From: Flavobacterium sp. N3904
GTDB lineage: Bacteria > Bacteroidota > Bacteroidia > Flavobacteriales > Flavobacteriaceae
Assembly: GCF_025947305.1 (NCBI RefSeq)
Contig: NZ_CP110009.1
Span: 1,178,001-1,242,000, forward strand
Length of the DNA: 64,000 bases
Direction of reading: 5' to 3'
Shown piece after piece: positions 25,251 through 63,267 of the stretch. The position numbers and the translations under genes are program-made. Within the stretch, counting starts at the first letter, position 1. Each line of letters opens with the position of its first letter. The notes beneath the pieces were generated by a model. It saw nothing but the letters and a program-made list of their open reading frames with translations. It did no database searches and was not told the DNA's origin.

Positions 25251-26495
25251 ATGCGAAAATTTCTCTTAAGTCTAATTTTTTTATGTCTGACCTCAGTAAT
25301 TTGGGGGCAAGAAACGCAACAAGAAAAATTAGAAAAACGAAAAGCCGAGATTCAACAAGAAATATTGGATAACGAAAAAATGTTGCAAACGGTAAAGAAA
25401 AAAGAAAAATCGGCCGTAAGCGTGATTATTTTGCAAAGCAATAAAATCAAACTCAAAGAAAAATTGATTTATACTACAGAGAAACAAACTAAGATTCTCA
25501 GTAATGACATGTATATCAATCAGATGAAAATTAATAAATTGAATCGGGAGTTGGTAATTCTGAAGGAAGATTACGCCAAGATGATTGTCAAGTCGTACAA
25601 AAGTAGATCTGAGCAAAGCCGAGCCATGTTTTTATTGTCCTCAGAGAATTTCCTGCAGGCCTACAAAAGAGCACAGTATATGAAACAATATACGAGCTAT
25701 AGAAAAATGCAAGGCGAAGAAATAAAATCAAAAACCAATGAACTTTTAGGATTTAATGAAAAACTGAATGTTCAAAAAGCAGCCAAAAAGAAATTATTAG
25801 CCGAAAACACCAAAGAGAAATTATCCCTCGAAAAGGAAAAAAGGGAACAATTAAAATTGGTTAATGCGATAAAAAAAGACAAGAAAAAAATCACGAACGA
25901 AATCAAAAAGAAGCAACAGGAATCAAGAGCTATTGATAGACAAATTGATCGATTGATTCGAGAAGCCATTGCTGAAGCAAATAGAAAAGCAGCAACAGAA
26001 AACGCAAAAGCAAATCCGAATGCTCCCGTTCCTGCTTATACATCTTCCAAAATTGTATTAACAGCCGAATCAAAAATTTTGGCAGATAATTTTAGAGCCA
26101 ATAGAGGAAAATTACCTTGGCCAGTAGAGAAAGGTTTTGTGTCGCTAGGATTTGGCGATCAGCCACATCCTGTTTATCCAAGCCTTGTCATACATAATAG
26201 CGGAGTGGAAATCACCACTGAACAAGGGGCATATGCGAGAGCGGTTTTTGGCGGAGAAGTGACCAGTGTTATTGTTTTGTCTCCAGTAAACAAAGCAGTT
26301 GTAGTGCAACATGGGGATTGTTTTACAGTGTATCAAAATCTAAGTTCAGTTTCGGTAAGCAAGGGAGATAAAGTAAATATTAAACAAAATTTAGGAAAAA
26401 TAAGAACCAATGGAGAAGGGAAAACCATCTTGAAGTTTACTATTTCACAAAACACCACTTATAATAATCCTGCAACTTGGTTGTATAACATGTAA
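25251..26495 (+). CDS. EnvC-like LytM-domain protein, probable amidase activator (copy 1)
   Basis: The frame opens at a TTG at 25230, but the ATG at 25251 directly precedes a clean signal peptide (MRKFLLSLIFLCLTSVIWGQ), so that start is used; the product is about 414 residues. A long coiled coil (about 20-250) rich in K, E and Q leads to a C-terminal LytM/M23 domain (about 290-414). Key zinc ligands are missing: the usual HxGxD is HNSGVE, and the YxHL motif is YQNL. As in E. coli EnvC, it should bind and activate a peptidoglycan amidase rather than cut the wall itself. A close paralogue follows. Confidence 0.88.
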   Translation: MRKFLLSLIFLCLTSVIWGQETQQEKLEKRKAEIQQEILDNEKMLQTVKKKEKSAVSVIILQSNKIKLKEKLIYTTEKQTKILSNDMYINQMKINKLNRELVILKEDYAKMIVKSYKSRSEQSRAMFLLSSENFLQAYKRAQYMKQYTSYRKMQGEEIKSKTNELLGFNEKLNVQKAAKKKLLAENTKEKLSLEKEKREQLKLVNAIKKDKKKITNEIKKKQQESRAIDRQIDRLIREAIAEANRKAATENAKANPNAPVPAYTSSKIVLTAESKILADNFRANRGKLPWPVEKGFVSLGFGDQPHPVYPSLVIHNSGVEITTEQGAYARAVFGGEVTSVIVLSPVNKAVVVQHGDCFTVYQNLSSVSVSKGDKVNIKQNLGKIRTNGEGKTILKFTISQNTTYNNPATWLYNM

Positions 26496-57549: not shown

Positions 57550-58191
57550 ATGAACAAGAAATTAACGCTGCTCTTTTTGGTGCTATTTATGCAGTTTTCG
57601 TGTAAAAATAATAATGAAGAACGTATAGCCGATAACCTAAGAGATACTAAAAAGAAAGAATTAATTTTTACTACGATAAATAAAGGCTGGACCTTTTATG
57701 ATACCCCTATTAATCCAACTTCTGAAGCATACTTAGCGACTTGGCCAGAATGGCGCGCCTTTATGGCTGAGTTGGCGGTTAAACCAAAAAAAACAATTGG
57801 TGCTTTTCAAAAGAAAGCAAAGGCCTTATCTGCCAAAGCAATGGCTTTGAATACCAATATACCGTCTCAATTTGACACACCACAGATAAGAAGCAGAATT
57901 GCCACTTTGATCACACAAGTACGAATGTTGGATTTATATATCAATCTCGATAAAGTTTCAGACAAAAAAGTGACCAAACTGGTTGCAGAGATAAACCTGG
58001 AGCTAGTTTCTTTGCAAAGACAAATGGATAAGATAGTAGAGAAAAGCAAAATTCCTATGGAAGTTGGGGAGTCAGAATTATTGCAAATGCTGGATACCGC
58101 AAGAGCTATTCCTTCGGGAAACCCAACTATACCGGGTAATCCTGGAGGTGCAACTATTCCAAAAAATCCAAATACACCGCACGTTGAGTAA
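57550..58191 (+). CDS. Putative lipoprotein preceding mfd
   Basis: The 213-residue product has a signal peptide ending MQFSC with the likely lipidated cysteine at residue 18. A mainly helical, lysine-rich body follows, then a glycine/proline/asparagine-rich tail (about 190-213, with repeated NPG-like turns). I do not recognise a characterised family. Its last codons overlap the mfd start by eight bases, so the two are translationally coupled. An envelope lipoprotein coupled to a DNA-repair helicase is odd; co-expression may be incidental. Confidence 0.8.
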   Translation: MNKKLTLLFLVLFMQFSCKNNNEERIADNLRDTKKKELIFTTINKGWTFYDTPINPTSEAYLATWPEWRAFMAELAVKPKKTIGAFQKKAKALSAKAMALNTNIPSQFDTPQIRSRIATLITQVRMLDLYINLDKVSDKKVTKLVAEINLELVSLQRQMDKIVEKSKIPMEVGESELLQMLDTARAIPSGNPTIPGNPGGATIPKNPNTPHVE

Positions 58192-61100
58192 ATCTGCTAT
58201 ATACTCGGTTTATGATTCTTCTCCCAAAACGGCACAGATTACAACTCGTTTGCTGGAAAATAATTCTGTAAAAATGCAATTGGAGGGCTTGTTGGGATCG
58301 GCTGTTTCGTTTGTGATTCAGTCGCTTTTTAAGAAAACAGAATTACCCTTTTTAATTGTATTTAATACTAAAGAAGAAGCTGCTTATTATTTGAACGATT
58401 TGGAGCAAATGATTGGCGAACAGGATGTGTTGTTTTACCCCGGTTCGTTTCGCCGTCCCTACCAAATTGAAGAAACGGACAATGCTAATGTTTTGCTTCG
58501 TTCCGAGGTACTCAACCGAATCAATTCCCGAAAAAAACCAGCCATAATTGTTACCTATCCCGAGGCTCTTTTCGAAAAAGTCGTGACTCGAAAAAATTTG
58601 GATAAAAACACCCTGAAAGTAAGTTTGGGCGATAAAATTTCGATTGATTTCCTAAATGAAGTTTTATTCGAATACGAATTCAAAAGAGTTGATTTTATAA
58701 CAGAACCAGGTGAATTCTCCGTTCGGGGAGGAATTGTCGACGTATTTTCGTTTTCGAATGACAATCCGTACCGAATAGAGTTTTTTGGGAATGAAGTCGA
58801 AAGCATCCGTAGTTTTGATGTAGGCACTCAATTGTCATTAGAAAAGCAGAAAAAAATCACCATTATACCAAATGTTGAAAATAAAATTTTTCAGGAAAAC
58901 AGAGAAAGCTTTCTGGATTATATAGCTGAAAGAACGGTTTTGTTTTTTCAAAATACCGAGAATCTTTTATACGAATTGGACAAGCAATTTGGCAGAGCCG
59001 AAGAAGCATTTGAGAAATTGTCCAAAGATATCAAACACGCTACGCCAGAACAATTGTTTCTGAACCAAAAAGCATTTGTAAAAAGAGCTTTGGATTTTTC
59101 GGTAGTAGAATTCAATTCAAAACCTGTTTTCAAAATAGCCAAGAAGTTTGAATTCCACATTCAGCCGCAACCATCGTTCAATAAACAATTTGATTTGCTG
59201 TTGAATAATCTGAGTGAGAATCAATTTAATGGATTCAAAAATTATTTATTTTGTTCGAACGAAGCACAGGCCAAACGCTTTCACGATATATTTGAAACCT
59301 TAGACGAAACAAATTCAGAGAATATCCGCAAACAATACAAGACCATTGTTTTGCCTTTGTACGAAGGTTTCATAGATACCGAAAACCAAATTGTCTGTTA
59401 TACCGATCATCAAATTTTTGAACGCTACCATAAATTTAGCATAAAAAATGGCTATTCGAAAAAGCAGAATCTAACGTTAAAAGAACTCACAACGTTATCC
59501 GTAGGTGATTATGTAACGCACATCGACCACGGAATCGGAAAGTTTGGAGGGTTGCAAAAAATTCAGGTTGAAGGCAAAACACAGGAAGCGATTAAACTGG
59601 TGTATGCCGATAATGATATTGTGTATGTGAGTATTCACTCGCTGCACAAAATTTCGAAATACAACGGAAAAGACGGAACGCCCCCAAAAATTTATAAATT
59701 AGGTTCGAATGCATGGAAGGTTTTAAAACAAAAAACTAAAGCAAGAGTCAAATATATTGCATTCAATTTGATTCAATTGTATGCCAAACGTCGATTGGAA
59801 AAAGGTTTCCAATTTGCTCCCGACAGTTATTTACAAAACGAATTGGAAAGTTCGTTTATCTACGAAGACACACCCGACCAAACCAAATCGACCCAAGAAG
59901 TCAAAGCCGATATGGAAAGTGAGCGCCCGATGGATCGCTTGGTTTGCGGAGATGTTGGATTTGGTAAAACTGAAGTTGCTATTCGTGCTGCTTTCAAGGC
60001 GGTGGACAATTCAAAACAAGTGGCGGTCTTGGTTCCAACGACTATTTTGGCGTACCAACATTTTCGAACTTTCAGCGAAAGATTAAAAGATATGCCGGTT
60101 TCTATCGGTTATTTAAACCGCTTCAGAACTGCCAAACAAAAAGCCGAAACCCTGAAACAATTGGCCGAAGGCAAACTGGACATAGTGATTGGCACACATC
60201 AATTGGTTAACAAAAATGTAGTTTTCAAAGACCTTGGATTATTGATTGTCGATGAGGAACAAAAATTTGGGGTTAATGTAAAAGACAAACTCAAAACCAT
60301 TGCTGCCAATGTTGATACCTTGACTTTGACGGCAACGCCAATTCCGAGAACCTTGCAGTTTTCGTTGATGGCGGCAAGAGATTTATCGGTAATTACGACA
60401 CCTCCGCCAAACAGATATCCTATAGAAACCAATGTGGTTGGTTTTAATGAAGAACTGATTCGAGATGCGATTTCGTATGAAATTCAGCGCAACGGACAGG
60501 TTTTCTTCATTAATAACCGAATCGAAAACATAAAGGAATTTGCCGGAATGATTCAGCGCTTAGTGCCCAATGCCCGAGTGGGAATTGGACACGGACAAAT
60601 GGAAGGCGCTAAACTCGAGGAATTGATGCTCGCCTTTATGAACGGTGAGTTCGATGTTTTGGTAGCGACCACCATTATCGAAAGTGGATTGGACGTTCCG
60701 AATGCAAATACCATTTTCATTAATAATGCCAATAATTTTGGTCTGTCAGATTTACATCAAATGCGCGGTCGAGTAGGACGTAGCAACAAGAAAGCGTTTT
60801 GTTATTTCATTTGCCCGCCCTATTCTCACATGACCGAAGATGCCCGTAAACGAATTCAGGCGTTGGAACAATTCAGCGAGTTGGGAAGCGGATTGAATAT
60901 TGCGATGAAAGATCTCGAAATTCGTGGTGCGGGAGATTTATTGGGAGGAGAGCAAAGCGGTTTCATCAACGATATTGGATTTGACACCTACCAAAAAATC
61001 ATGAACGAGGCTATTGAGGAATTGAAGGAAAACGAATTTAAGGATTTATACCCCGAAGAAAGCAATATCGAAACCAAAGAATATGTAAAAGACCTGCAAA

Positions 61101-61552
61101 TCGACACCGATTTTGAGTTGTTGTTTTCAGACGAATACATCAATAATGTAACCGAACGTTTGAGTTTATACAACGAGTTGAGTGCTGTGAAAAATGAAGA
61201 AGAACTCATTGTTTTTCAAAACAAACTGATTGATCGTTTTGGCCCAATGCCGCCAAGAGCACTTGCTTTAATGAACAGCATCCGCATCAAATGGATTGCA
61301 ACCAAAGTTGGAATTGAAAAATTGGTAATGAAAAAAGGCAAGATGATTGGTTACTTCGTCTCCGATCAACAATCGGATTATTATCATTCGACACGTTTTC
61401 ATAAAGTGATTCAGTTTGTGCAAAAAAACAGTACTATTTGTGTAATGAAAGAAAAGCAAACTCCAGCAGGATTACGACTTTTATTGACTTTTGATAATGT
61501 GAAGAATACAAGGAGGGCTTTGGAATTGATGAAGTTGTTGGGAGGGGAATAA
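58184..61552 (+). CDS. mfd: Transcription-repair coupling factor Mfd
   Basis: The 1122-residue helicase releases stalled RNA polymerase and recruits UvrA. The frame is open from 58064, but the region before 58184 encodes the lipoprotein in another frame, so the TTG at 58184 (SKSAIYSVYDSSPK) is preferred. UvrB-like region is near 60-200, the RNA-polymerase-interacting domain near 440-510, and the RecG-like helicase has Walker A GDVGFGKT (589-596) and D690-E-E-Q693. The C-terminal TRCF domain ends ALELMKLLGGE. A diverged copy of its last 19 codons is found about 930 bases downstream. Confidence 0.95.
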   Translation: MSKSAIYSVYDSSPKTAQITTRLLENNSVKMQLEGLLGSAVSFVIQSLFKKTELPFLIVFNTKEEAAYYLNDLEQMIGEQDVLFYPGSFRRPYQIEETDNANVLLRSEVLNRINSRKKPAIIVTYPEALFEKVVTRKNLDKNTLKVSLGDKISIDFLNEVLFEYEFKRVDFITEPGEFSVRGGIVDVFSFSNDNPYRIEFFGNEVESIRSFDVGTQLSLEKQKKITIIPNVENKIFQENRESFLDYIAERTVLFFQNTENLLYELDKQFGRAEEAFEKLSKDIKHATPEQLFLNQKAFVKRALDFSVVEFNSKPVFKIAKKFEFHIQPQPSFNKQFDLLLNNLSENQFNGFKNYLFCSNEAQAKRFHDIFETLDETNSENIRKQYKTIVLPLYEGFIDTENQIVCYTDHQIFERYHKFSIKNGYSKKQNLTLKELTTLSVGDYVTHIDHGIGKFGGLQKIQVEGKTQEAIKLVYADNDIVYVSIHSLHKISKYNGKDGTPPKIYKLGSNAWKVLKQKTKARVKYIAFNLIQLYAKRRLEKGFQFAPDSYLQNELESSFIYEDTPDQTKSTQEVKADMESERPMDRLVCGDVGFGKTEVAIRAAFKAVDNSKQVAVLVPTTILAYQHFRTFSERLKDMPVSIGYLNRFRTAKQKAETLKQLAEGKLDIVIGTHQLVNKNVVFKDLGLLIVDEEQKFGVNVKDKLKTIAANVDTLTLTATPIPRTLQFSLMAARDLSVITTPPPNRYPIETNVVGFNEELIRDAISYEIQRNGQVFFINNRIENIKEFAGMIQRLVPNARVGIGHGQMEGAKLEELMLAFMNGEFDVLVATTIIESGLDVPNANTIFINNANNFGLSDLHQMRGRVGRSNKKAFCYFICPPYSHMTEDARKRIQALEQFSELGSGLNIAMKDLEIRGAGDLLGGEQSGFINDIGFDTYQKIMNEAIEELKENEFKDLYPEESNIETKEYVKDLQIDTDFELLFSDEYINNVTERLSLYNELSAVKNEEELIVFQNKLIDRFGPMPPRALALMNSIRIKWIATKVGIEKLVMKKGKMIGYFVSDQQSDYYHSTRFHKVIQFVQKNSTICVMKEKQTPAGLRLLLTFDNVKNTRRALELMKLLGGE

Positions 61553-61596: not shown

Positions 61597-62385
61597 ATGA
61601 AAACAAAACATTCAACATTCCTACTCCTTTTTTCAGCCCTATTATTTATTAACTGGAATACCTTTCAAGAGAAATGGATACCAGAAAAACATTCGAACTA
61701 TACAATATTTTACACATCAAACGATATACAAAATAAAAAGGAATATAATAAACTTGTTGAGAGTGGGATCATTTCTGTAAAAAAGTTTTTTAATTCATCC
61801 TACTCCAAAAAATTTAACGTTTATATTCATCCTAATAGAAAATCATTAGACAGTACTTGGCAAAAAGATTGGAACATGCCGGATTTTAAATCGGAGTGTT
61901 GGATGGTGGCTAGCGGCGTTGGTACAAAATTAGATGTTATTTCCCCTAAGCTTTGGGACAAAGAAGCCTGTGAGCATATTTATTCGCAAACAACAAACAC
62001 ACAACAGTTAATAACTCATGAATTAGTTCACGTTTATCATGGACAATTAAATACTAGCCCAGACTTTAGTAATGTGGAAGGAATAGATTGGTTTGTTGAA
62101 GGTTTGGCGACATTTGCTTCCGGACAATGTGATTCAACCCGCATAAAAGAAGTAAAAAAAGCAATTAATGAGAATAAAATCCCCAAAAGCTTGGATGATT
62201 TTTGGACAGGTAAAATTAAGTACGGCCTTTCTGGTTCTGTTGTCATGTTTATAGATCATAAGTATGGACGACTTAAACTTAAGGAAATTTTAGAGACAAA
62301 TAAAAAAACAGAACTTTTATCGATACTTAGAACCACTGAGCCCGAATTATTAGAAGAGTGGAAAAAGTATATTCAAAGTTTATAA
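61597..62385 (+). CDS. Putative secreted zinc metalloprotease (gluzincin-like)
   Basis: The 262-residue product has a signal-like hydrophobic N-terminus (about 8-22). The zinc motif is H141-E142-L-V-H145, and a downstream glutamate is E168 in WFVEGLATF (HEXXH-x22-E). That layout fits the MA-like peptidase group. The substrate is unknown. It lies between mfd and a second copy of the mfd tail, so it may have arrived by recombination at the mfd end. Confidence 0.8.
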   Translation: MKTKHSTFLLLFSALLFINWNTFQEKWIPEKHSNYTIFYTSNDIQNKKEYNKLVESGIISVKKFFNSSYSKKFNVYIHPNRKSLDSTWQKDWNMPDFKSECWMVASGVGTKLDVISPKLWDKEACEHIYSQTTNTQQLITHELVHVYHGQLNTSPDFSNVEGIDWFVEGLATFASGQCDSTRIKEVKKAINENKIPKSLDDFWTGKIKYGLSGSVVMFIDHKYGRLKLKEILETNKKTELLSILRTTEPELLEEWKKYIQSL

Positions 62386-62421
62386 TACCAAACCCAAATA
62401 ATTCGCAGAACATTTTCATAT

Positions 62422-62478
62422 AATGTGAAAAATACGAGAAGAGCTTTGGAACTGAAGGAGATGCTGGGAGGGGAATAA
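62422..62478 (+). pseudogene. Detached second copy of the mfd 3' end
   Basis: Nineteen codons encode NVKNTRRALELKEMLGGE and a stop. The corresponding mfd end (61496-61552) encodes NVKNTRRALELMKLLGGE. By my count 48 of 57 bases agree, and six of the nine differences are silent. The few bases upstream also look alike, but no longer mfd segment is present and there is no start. Confidence 0.8.
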
Positions 62479-62583
62479 AAGGAAGTTTTGTTCGTAATTT
62501 ACTTTTTTTAGTCTAAATTGTATTCATTCTTTATAAAACGATTTTGTTTATAGTTCCATTTTTCAATAAAAATAGTATCCCCT

Positions 62584-63267
62584 ATGAAAAAAACAATCTT
62601 AGTAGTTGCACTTTTGATAGTTACCTTTTCTACGACTTATGCGCAAGAAATAAGTTTTGAAATCCCCGATTACAACTTAATCAAGAAAAATATTGAAGAT
62701 AAAAACTCCAATTATTATTATCCCAAATTATTGGAAAGAATGATTGCTAATGATACATTATTGACTAACGAGGATTATAGACATTTGTATTTTGGATATG
62801 TTTTTAATTCAAAATACGATGCTTATTTTAGGTCGCCAGACGAAGAAAAATTGAAAAAATATTTAAGTAGTGATACCATAGCCAAAAAGGATTATGACGA
62901 AATAATAAAATTAGCAGAACATTCCATAACTGTATTCCCTTTTGATTTACGGCAAATGAATTATCTCGGTTATGTTTATCACTTAAAAGGAGATAATGTA
63001 GCCGCAATAAAAATATCAAATCGATTTCAGAATATTTTGAAAGCAATATTGTCATCAGGAAATGGAGAAAAATGCGAAACGGGTTTTAATGTAATATCGG
63101 TCAGTCACGAATATGTTTTCTTGAATATGTTTCGATTAGAATCCAGATCACAAAGCCTGGTTGGTGATTGTGATTATTTGGCTTTTGAAAAAGGAAAGTA
63201 CAGCATAGACGGGATGTATTTTAATATCAAAAAGATGTTAGAAAACGAAGCAAAACATTTTAAATGA
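62584..63267 (+). CDS. DUF4919-family exported protein
   Basis: The 227-residue product has a signal peptide ending STTYAQ and a helical body with the DUF4919 features: DYNLIKKNIEDKNSNYYYPKL and LTNEDYRHLYFGYVF, then LAEHSITVFPFDLRQMNYLGYVYHLKGD. Function is unknown. It stands alone, 106 bases past the mfd-tail remnant. Confidence 0.85.
   Translation: MKKTILVVALLIVTFSTTYAQEISFEIPDYNLIKKNIEDKNSNYYYPKLLERMIANDTLLTNEDYRHLYFGYVFNSKYDAYFRSPDEEKLKKYLSSDTIAKKDYDEIIKLAEHSITVFPFDLRQMNYLGYVYHLKGDNVAAIKISNRFQNILKAILSSGNGEKCETGFNVISVSHEYVFLNMFRLESRSQSLVGDCDYLAFEKGKYSIDGMYFNIKKMLENEAKHFK

What the first reader, a model, noticed from the sequence alone, without database searches (positions are those of the whole stretch)
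62422..62478. A second, diverged mfd 3' end behind the gene that follows mfd
The last 19 codons of mfd are repeated 930 bases downstream with 48 of 57 bases equal; six of nine changes are silent. Mostly silent divergence means this copy evolved as part of a working mfd, not as a decaying local duplicate. A natural reading is that a segment carrying the zinc-protease gene integrated or recombined at the mfd end, leaving two different mfd tails on either side (like attL/attR).
Basis: partly seen in the sequence, partly recalled or inferred. Interest (0 to 1): 0.65.

Follow-up and report, generated by a model that had tools for sequence, protein, structure and literature searches.

The report
Imported gene leaves two mfd tails
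In this Flavobacterium a foreign protease gene was slipped in behind the DNA-repair gene mfd with its own copy of the last stretch of mfd, pushing the old gene end downstream, and at least eight related species show the same scar with other cargo, often toxin-antitoxin or phage-defence genes, so the end of mfd is a recurrent docking place for new genes without any visible mobile element.

Summary
The last 57 bases of mfd (61496-61552) recur at 62422-62478 with 48 of 57 equal; random sequence reaches at most 33. Of the nine differences, six are silent. In one relative (G094) mfd runs straight into the DUF4919 gene, with no protease and one tail, so the downstream copy occupies the old mfd end. 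The protease is at mfd only here; 3 of the other 397 genomes searched carry an ortholog. The pattern is not unique. At least eight other Flavobacterium species carry one or two further mfd tails, same strand, 0.6-7 kb downstream, with cargo in between: DarTG, YafQ and HigBA-type modules, a RelE-like pair, a radical-SAM/C39 peptide cluster. In seven species the tails differ by 61 silent and 18 replacing changes, too silent for a duplicate that decayed in place. Repeat length varies from 38 to 237 bp and no integrase was seen, which argues against attL/attR. Best reading: one-sided homologous recombination in mfd that imports tail plus cargo. Closest known kind: insertion with long target duplication.

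The parts
58064..61552 (+). mfd (transcription-repair coupling factor); exact start codon uncertain (TTG 58064 to ATG 58274)
   Evidence: TIGR00580 equivalog 986.8 bits, cut-off 800; Pfam UvrB_inter, CarD_TRCF_RID, DEAD, Helicase_C, TRCF; ORF
61494..61552 (+). tail 1: the mfd 3' end now in use (VKNTRRALELMKLLGGE*); carries an E->K change not seen in 20 relatives; inferred to have arrived with the cargo
61597..62385 (+). cargo: 262-aa protein with hydrophobic N-terminus, predicted HExxH zinc protease (HELVH)
   Evidence: Pfam Peptidase_MA_2 2.4e-5, Peptidase_M9 1.4e-4, both below cut-off; flagellinolysin model 6.7e-6, below cut-off; no PADLOC match; no plasmid or phage match
62386..62419 (+). 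34-bp right junction between the cargo stop codon and tail 2; no detectable similarity to mfd
   Evidence: alignment; sequence
62420..62478 (+). tail 2: displaced, truncated former mfd 3' end, not translated (NVKNTRRALELKEMLGGE*)
   Evidence: 48/57, chance maximum 33; position matches the mfd end of G094 relative to the DUF4919 gene
62479..62583 (+). former mfd-DUF4919 spacer (105 bp here, 81 bp in G094)
62584..63267 (+). DUF4919 gene, direct right neighbour of mfd in G094
   Evidence: PF16266 6.5e-65; 82% aa identity to the G094 gene that starts 82 bp after its mfd

Best explanation
The old arrangement was mfd followed by the DUF4919 gene. DNA from another Flavobacterium-like cell that carried its own mfd 3' end with the protease gene behind it recombined into the locus. 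On the left it joined by homology inside mfd, so mfd stayed intact but took the donor's last codons (tail 1). On the right it joined by an illegitimate or very short-homology junction inside the recipient's own mfd end, leaving the recipient's last ~59 bases (tail 2) stranded in front of DUF4919. The event is recurrent: the slot behind mfd turns over rapidly in the genus, and at least eight other species carry the same scar with other cargo, two of them with two cargo-plus-tail units in a row. Shown: the repeat, its extra copies in other species, the empty site, the native spacing of the last tail, the cargo, the mostly silent divergence in the pooled cases. Inferred: direction (gain, not loss), import of tail 1 from outside, and the recombination route (linear DNA with one homologous end, or a single crossover by a circle that holds tail plus cargo).
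For: G094: single tail, DUF4919 starts 82 bp after mfd, no protease, synteny continues past DUF4919. Native spacing of the last tail in five other species: G141 tail to c12 gene 57 bp, relative G040 49 bp; G138 and G028 tail to yraN about 5 bp, relative G064 7 bp; G319 tail to kinase gene 170 bp, relatives G051/G005 151/130 bp; G089 tail to c12 gene 85 bp, relatives 48-109 bp. Seven-species pool 61 silent to 18 replacing, expected silent share 0.385 for duplicate-then-decay, P = 3e-12. Extra tails in 9 of 121 mfd sequences surveyed, all on the mfd strand; in the evenly drawn part 5 of 100, against 2 of 855 other genes, P = 2e-4, or 1.4e-3 with this window left out. First ORF behind mfd falls in 64 families in 120 genomes, 38 singletons; 1-18 families behind eight neighbouring genes. 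Protease in 4 of 398 genomes, with relatives up to 75% identical in other Bacteroidota MAGs.
Against: For this window only one empty-site relative was found; recombination between the two tails would restore a single tail, so G094 could be a loss. Tail 2 is too short to place by sequence; clearest exception G319, where it sits closer to sister species than tail 1. G028/G138 tails do not show the silent excess (7 to 8). No donor with mfd followed by the protease was found. No jump in identity marks a left breakpoint in mfd. Shared junction positions (six tail copies in four species start within about 11 bp of each other) hint at some site preference.
Confidence: 0.62

Rival explanations
1. Insertion with long target duplication in place: a cargo module inserted into mfd and copied the last 40-240 bases of its target, as described for restriction-modification genes; the tails were identical at first and drifted apart.
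For: Repeat length is long and variable as in that class (PMC3874152). Some pairs are nearly identical: G153 97.8% over 228 bp, G138 98.8% and 97.1%. A second gene (517 aa) in G029 and G142 has a 54-bp tail copy that matches its own species' tail (94%, 100%) with a candidate-defence pair between.
Against: The silent excess in the seven-species pool, clearest in G319 11:0 and G394 10:1; in this window tail 1, not tail 2, holds the E->K change unique among 20 relatives.
Confidence: 0.2
2. Site-specific integration (attL/attR) by a tyrosine or serine recombinase whose element carries a copy of the mfd end.
For: The gene end is restored and the old end displaced, as with islands in tRNA and protein gene ends; six tail copies in four species start within about 11 bp.
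Against: No recombinase was seen among the cargo ORFs; left edges range from about 38 to 237 bp before the end; no tRNA nearby.
Confidence: 0.08
3. Whole-locus replacement by ordinary double crossover from a donor that already had both tails; the scar arose elsewhere.
For: The slot is a turnover hotspot; shared cargo behind mfd in different species (RelE-like pair in G068, G141, G246; HTH gene in G146 and G394).
Against: Does not explain how the two tails arose; no other species with the protease at mfd was found.
Confidence: 0.1

Closest known systems
Insertion with long target duplication (Nobusato et al. 2000, cited in PMC1643837 and PMC3874152; H. pylori restriction-modification genes)
   Same: Small cargo without its own transposase, flanked by long direct repeats of the target of variable length (order of 100 bp); cargo often of the addiction type.
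   Different: Here the repeats sit at the end of one core gene in many species, keep that gene whole, are mostly diverged in a silent-biased way, and can be stacked.
Homology-facilitated illegitimate recombination (PMC3240628)
   Same: One homologous and one illegitimate end; would give a restored gene plus a truncated second copy.
   Different: Known from laboratory transformation and conjugation; here inferred from scars only.
Turnover hotspots without mobile elements that show recombination in flanking core genes (PMC5635113)
   Same: A core-gene interval with rapid gene turnover and no visible element.
   Different: The tail repeats give a physical record of single events, which the hotspot statistics do not.
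Genomic islands in gene 3' ends (attL/attR)
   Same: Gene end restored by the element, old end displaced.
   Different: No integrase seen, no fixed core, variable repeat length.

Membership tests
Insertion with long target duplication | Cargo flanked by direct repeats of the target sequence, tens to hundreds of bp | tested here: met
   38-237 bp repeats in nine species
[quoted passage not shown]
   G094 for this window; G040, G064, G051/G005 for other cases
Insertion with long target duplication | Both repeats derive from the same target molecule | tested here: inconclusive
   silent-biased divergence speaks against it in the seven-species pool, near-identity for it in G153 and G138
Homology-facilitated illegitimate recombination | One homologous junction | tested here: inconclusive
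   mfd is continuous on the left but no breakpoint was located
Homology-facilitated illegitimate recombination | One illegitimate junction with little or no homology | tested here: met
   abrupt, variable left edges of tail 2, often within a few bases of the cargo stop codon
attL/attR islands | Recombinase gene in the element | tested here: not met
   no integrase noticed among cargo ORFs of nine species; not every cargo ORF was run against a family library
attL/attR islands | Constant crossover core | tested here: not met
   tail 2 starts at model positions 89-96, 143, 152, 224-235, 275 in different species
HGT hotspot | Many different genes in one core-gene interval | tested here: met
   64 families in first place behind mfd in 120 genomes

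The most novel reading that the evidence does not exclude
Cargo plus mfd tail is a portable unit: a circle or fragment that uses the end of a host core gene as its homology arm, docks by the host's own recombination, repairs the gene as it lands, and stacks into arrays (two units in G138 and G028). It would be an integrase-free counterpart of islands at tRNA genes, used for toxin-antitoxin and defence modules.
Probability: 0.18. Interest if true: 0.8.

Novelty: new variant of a known kind. Interest (0 to 1): 0.55.

Why it matters
How bacteria take up single genes or small defence and toxin-antitoxin modules without a visible mobile element is an open question; hotspots are known statistically, but single events rarely leave a readable trace. 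The mfd tails are such a trace: they mark the event, the old site and the cargo. They make it possible to test whether defence modules ride on the homology of a core gene, and they give a simple search rule (a gene end repeated downstream on the same strand) that already picked out DarTG, several toxin-antitoxin pairs and a candidate defence pair.

Tried and rejected
Chance similarity: rejected (48/57 against a maximum of 33). Local tandem paralogue: rejected, only the gene end is repeated and only for mfd in 464 kb of this genome. Assembly artefact: unlikely, G000 is one contig and eight other species show the pattern. Mapping a breakpoint in mfd: the near relatives are about equally distant (80-93%), a bump of similarity to G150 at 60850-61300 is not conclusive. 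Co-transfer of mfd with shared cargo: no rise of identity towards the mfd end in pairs with shared cargo. Deciding native against imported tail by sequence alone: too short, clearest exception G319. Finding a donor with mfd followed by the protease: none in 398 genomes of the genus nor among seven loci in the named genome collection. Plasmid or phage origin of the protease: no match. Literature on mfd as an integration site: nothing relevant found.

Full report
What is there. mfd ends at 61552. A 262-aa gene, probably a secreted zinc protease, follows at 61597-62385, and then, at 62420-62478, comes a second copy of the last 59 bases of mfd, 85% identical. Six of the nine differences are silent. 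After another 105 bases comes a DUF4919 gene. In 464 kb of this genome (365 genes) no other gene end, stop codon included, is repeated downstream on its own strand.

Which end is the old one. In relative G094 mfd is followed after 81 bases by the same DUF4919 gene (82% identical) and then by the same next gene; there is no protease and only one mfd end. The second tail of the window therefore sits where the mfd end of G094 sits. In a search of 398 genomes of the genus the protease has full-length relatives (66-73%) in three other species only; in two of them it lies between the same two unrelated genes, not at mfd. The named genome collection gave seven relatives, mostly in MAGs of other Bacteroidota and up to 75% identical; plasmids and phages gave none. 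The gene is sporadic, which suggests horizontal movement.

The pattern recurs. The same DNA search showed second copies of the mfd end behind mfd in other species. A profile of the last 330 bases of mfd, run over the downstream DNA of 121 mfd loci (95 with at least 9 kb), together with each species' own tail, gave nine species with extra tails: the window, G153, G394, G246, G319, G089, G138, G028 and G141; G138 and G028 have two each. All lie on the mfd strand. Four of the nine (G153, G246, G319, G394) entered the survey because they had been flagged beforehand; in the evenly drawn part the count is 5 of 100 mfd genes against 2 of 855 other genes (P = 2e-4; 1.4e-3 without the window). The first gene behind mfd belongs to 64 families in 120 genomes, 38 of them seen once, against 1-18 families behind eight neighbouring genes. 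The end of mfd is thus a turnover hotspot.

Cargo. G153: DarT and DarG (Pfam and PADLOC). G138 and G028: a YafQ-type pair, then a tail, then a HigB/HigA-type pair, then a tail. G246 and G141: a small RelE-like pair named from its layout (77 and 99-100 aa, antitoxin only weakly like TIGR02574). G319: C39-type ABC exporter, radical SAM enzyme, a short peptide, an outer membrane receptor and an HTH gene; G089: receptor, GLPGLI-type gene, HTH gene. G394: HTH gene and unknown genes. No integrase was noticed, though not every ORF was run against a library.

Native position of the last tail elsewhere. In G141 the last tail is 57 bases from the c12 gene; in its relative G040 mfd is 49 bases from it. 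In G138 and G028 the last tail is about 5 bases from yraN; in G064 mfd is 7. In G319 the last tail is 170 bases from a kinase gene; in G051 and G005 mfd is 151 and 130. In G089 it is 85 bases from c12; in relatives 48-109. In each case the cargo lies between a new end and the old end of mfd.

Imported or duplicated. If the tail had been duplicated in place, the stranded copy would decay freely and about 39% of all differences should be silent. Pooled over seven species 61 are silent and 18 are not (P = 3e-12); the window alone gives 6 to 3 (P = 0.08), and G138/G028 show no excess. In the window it is the tail in use that has a replacement (E to K) not seen in 20 relatives, while the stranded tail keeps states common among them at five of the nine sites. 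In G319 the stranded tail is closer to the sister species (91%, 89%) than the tail in use (85%, 84%). So in most cases the two ends diverged while both were working, that is, in different cells. Nearly identical pairs (G153, G138) fit recent events or donors of the same species.

Mechanism. The repeats are 38 to 237 bases long, with edges that often fall within a few bases of the cargo's last stop codon. This fits one homologous joint in mfd and one illegitimate joint, the anatomy of homology-facilitated illegitimate recombination (PMC3240628), or a single crossover by a circle with tail and cargo. It does not fit a fixed att core, although six tail copies in four species start within about 11 bases of one another in an A-rich stretch, so some preference is possible. 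I found no left breakpoint in mfd.

Known relatives. Insertion with long, variable target duplications of about 100 bp is described for restriction-modification systems (PMC1643837, PMC3874152), and hotspots without mobile elements but with recombination in flanking core genes are described (PMC5635113). I found no paper that names the mfd end as such a site, in a library that lacks most subscription journals. I file this as a new variant of a known kind: same scar, but on one core gene across a genus, with silent-biased divergence of the repeats and with stacking.

Limits. There is one empty-site genome for the window, and tail-to-tail recombination could recreate such a site. 398 of a larger number of species were searched, and the first search was made with the window's own tail, so diverged cases were missed. 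Names of relatives are withheld, so they are given by handle.

Noticed in passing
L205 (G029) and L224 (G142), about 1.8 kb behind a 517-aa gene ending TTSLPLAQGIKFDL: The last 54 bp of this other gene are repeated downstream (94% and 100% to the same species' own tail) with a HipA-like plus HIRAN gene pair between, matching PADLOC candidate system PDC-M03. A second gene end with the same scar.
   Followed up: partly
L190 and L189 (G138, G028), left of both extra tails: The two unrelated toxin-antitoxin units share about 25 bp (TTTTTCTCTTATTNGCAATATC) just before each mfd tail; a possible unit boundary.
   Followed up: partly
L188 and L191 (G319, G089), cargo-tail junction: Two otherwise different cargos end in related HTH genes that join the mfd tail at the same nucleotide (AAACAAA/AATGAAAG).
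   Followed up: partly
window 25251-26495: 414-aa ORF whose 3' region (not the stop) is repeated 1.4 kb downstream at 80%; likely a tandem paralogue.
   Followed up: no
window 60850-61300: mfd is most similar to G150 here (92%) although G150 is among the more distant relatives over much of the rest of the gene; possible mosaic segment.
   Followed up: partly
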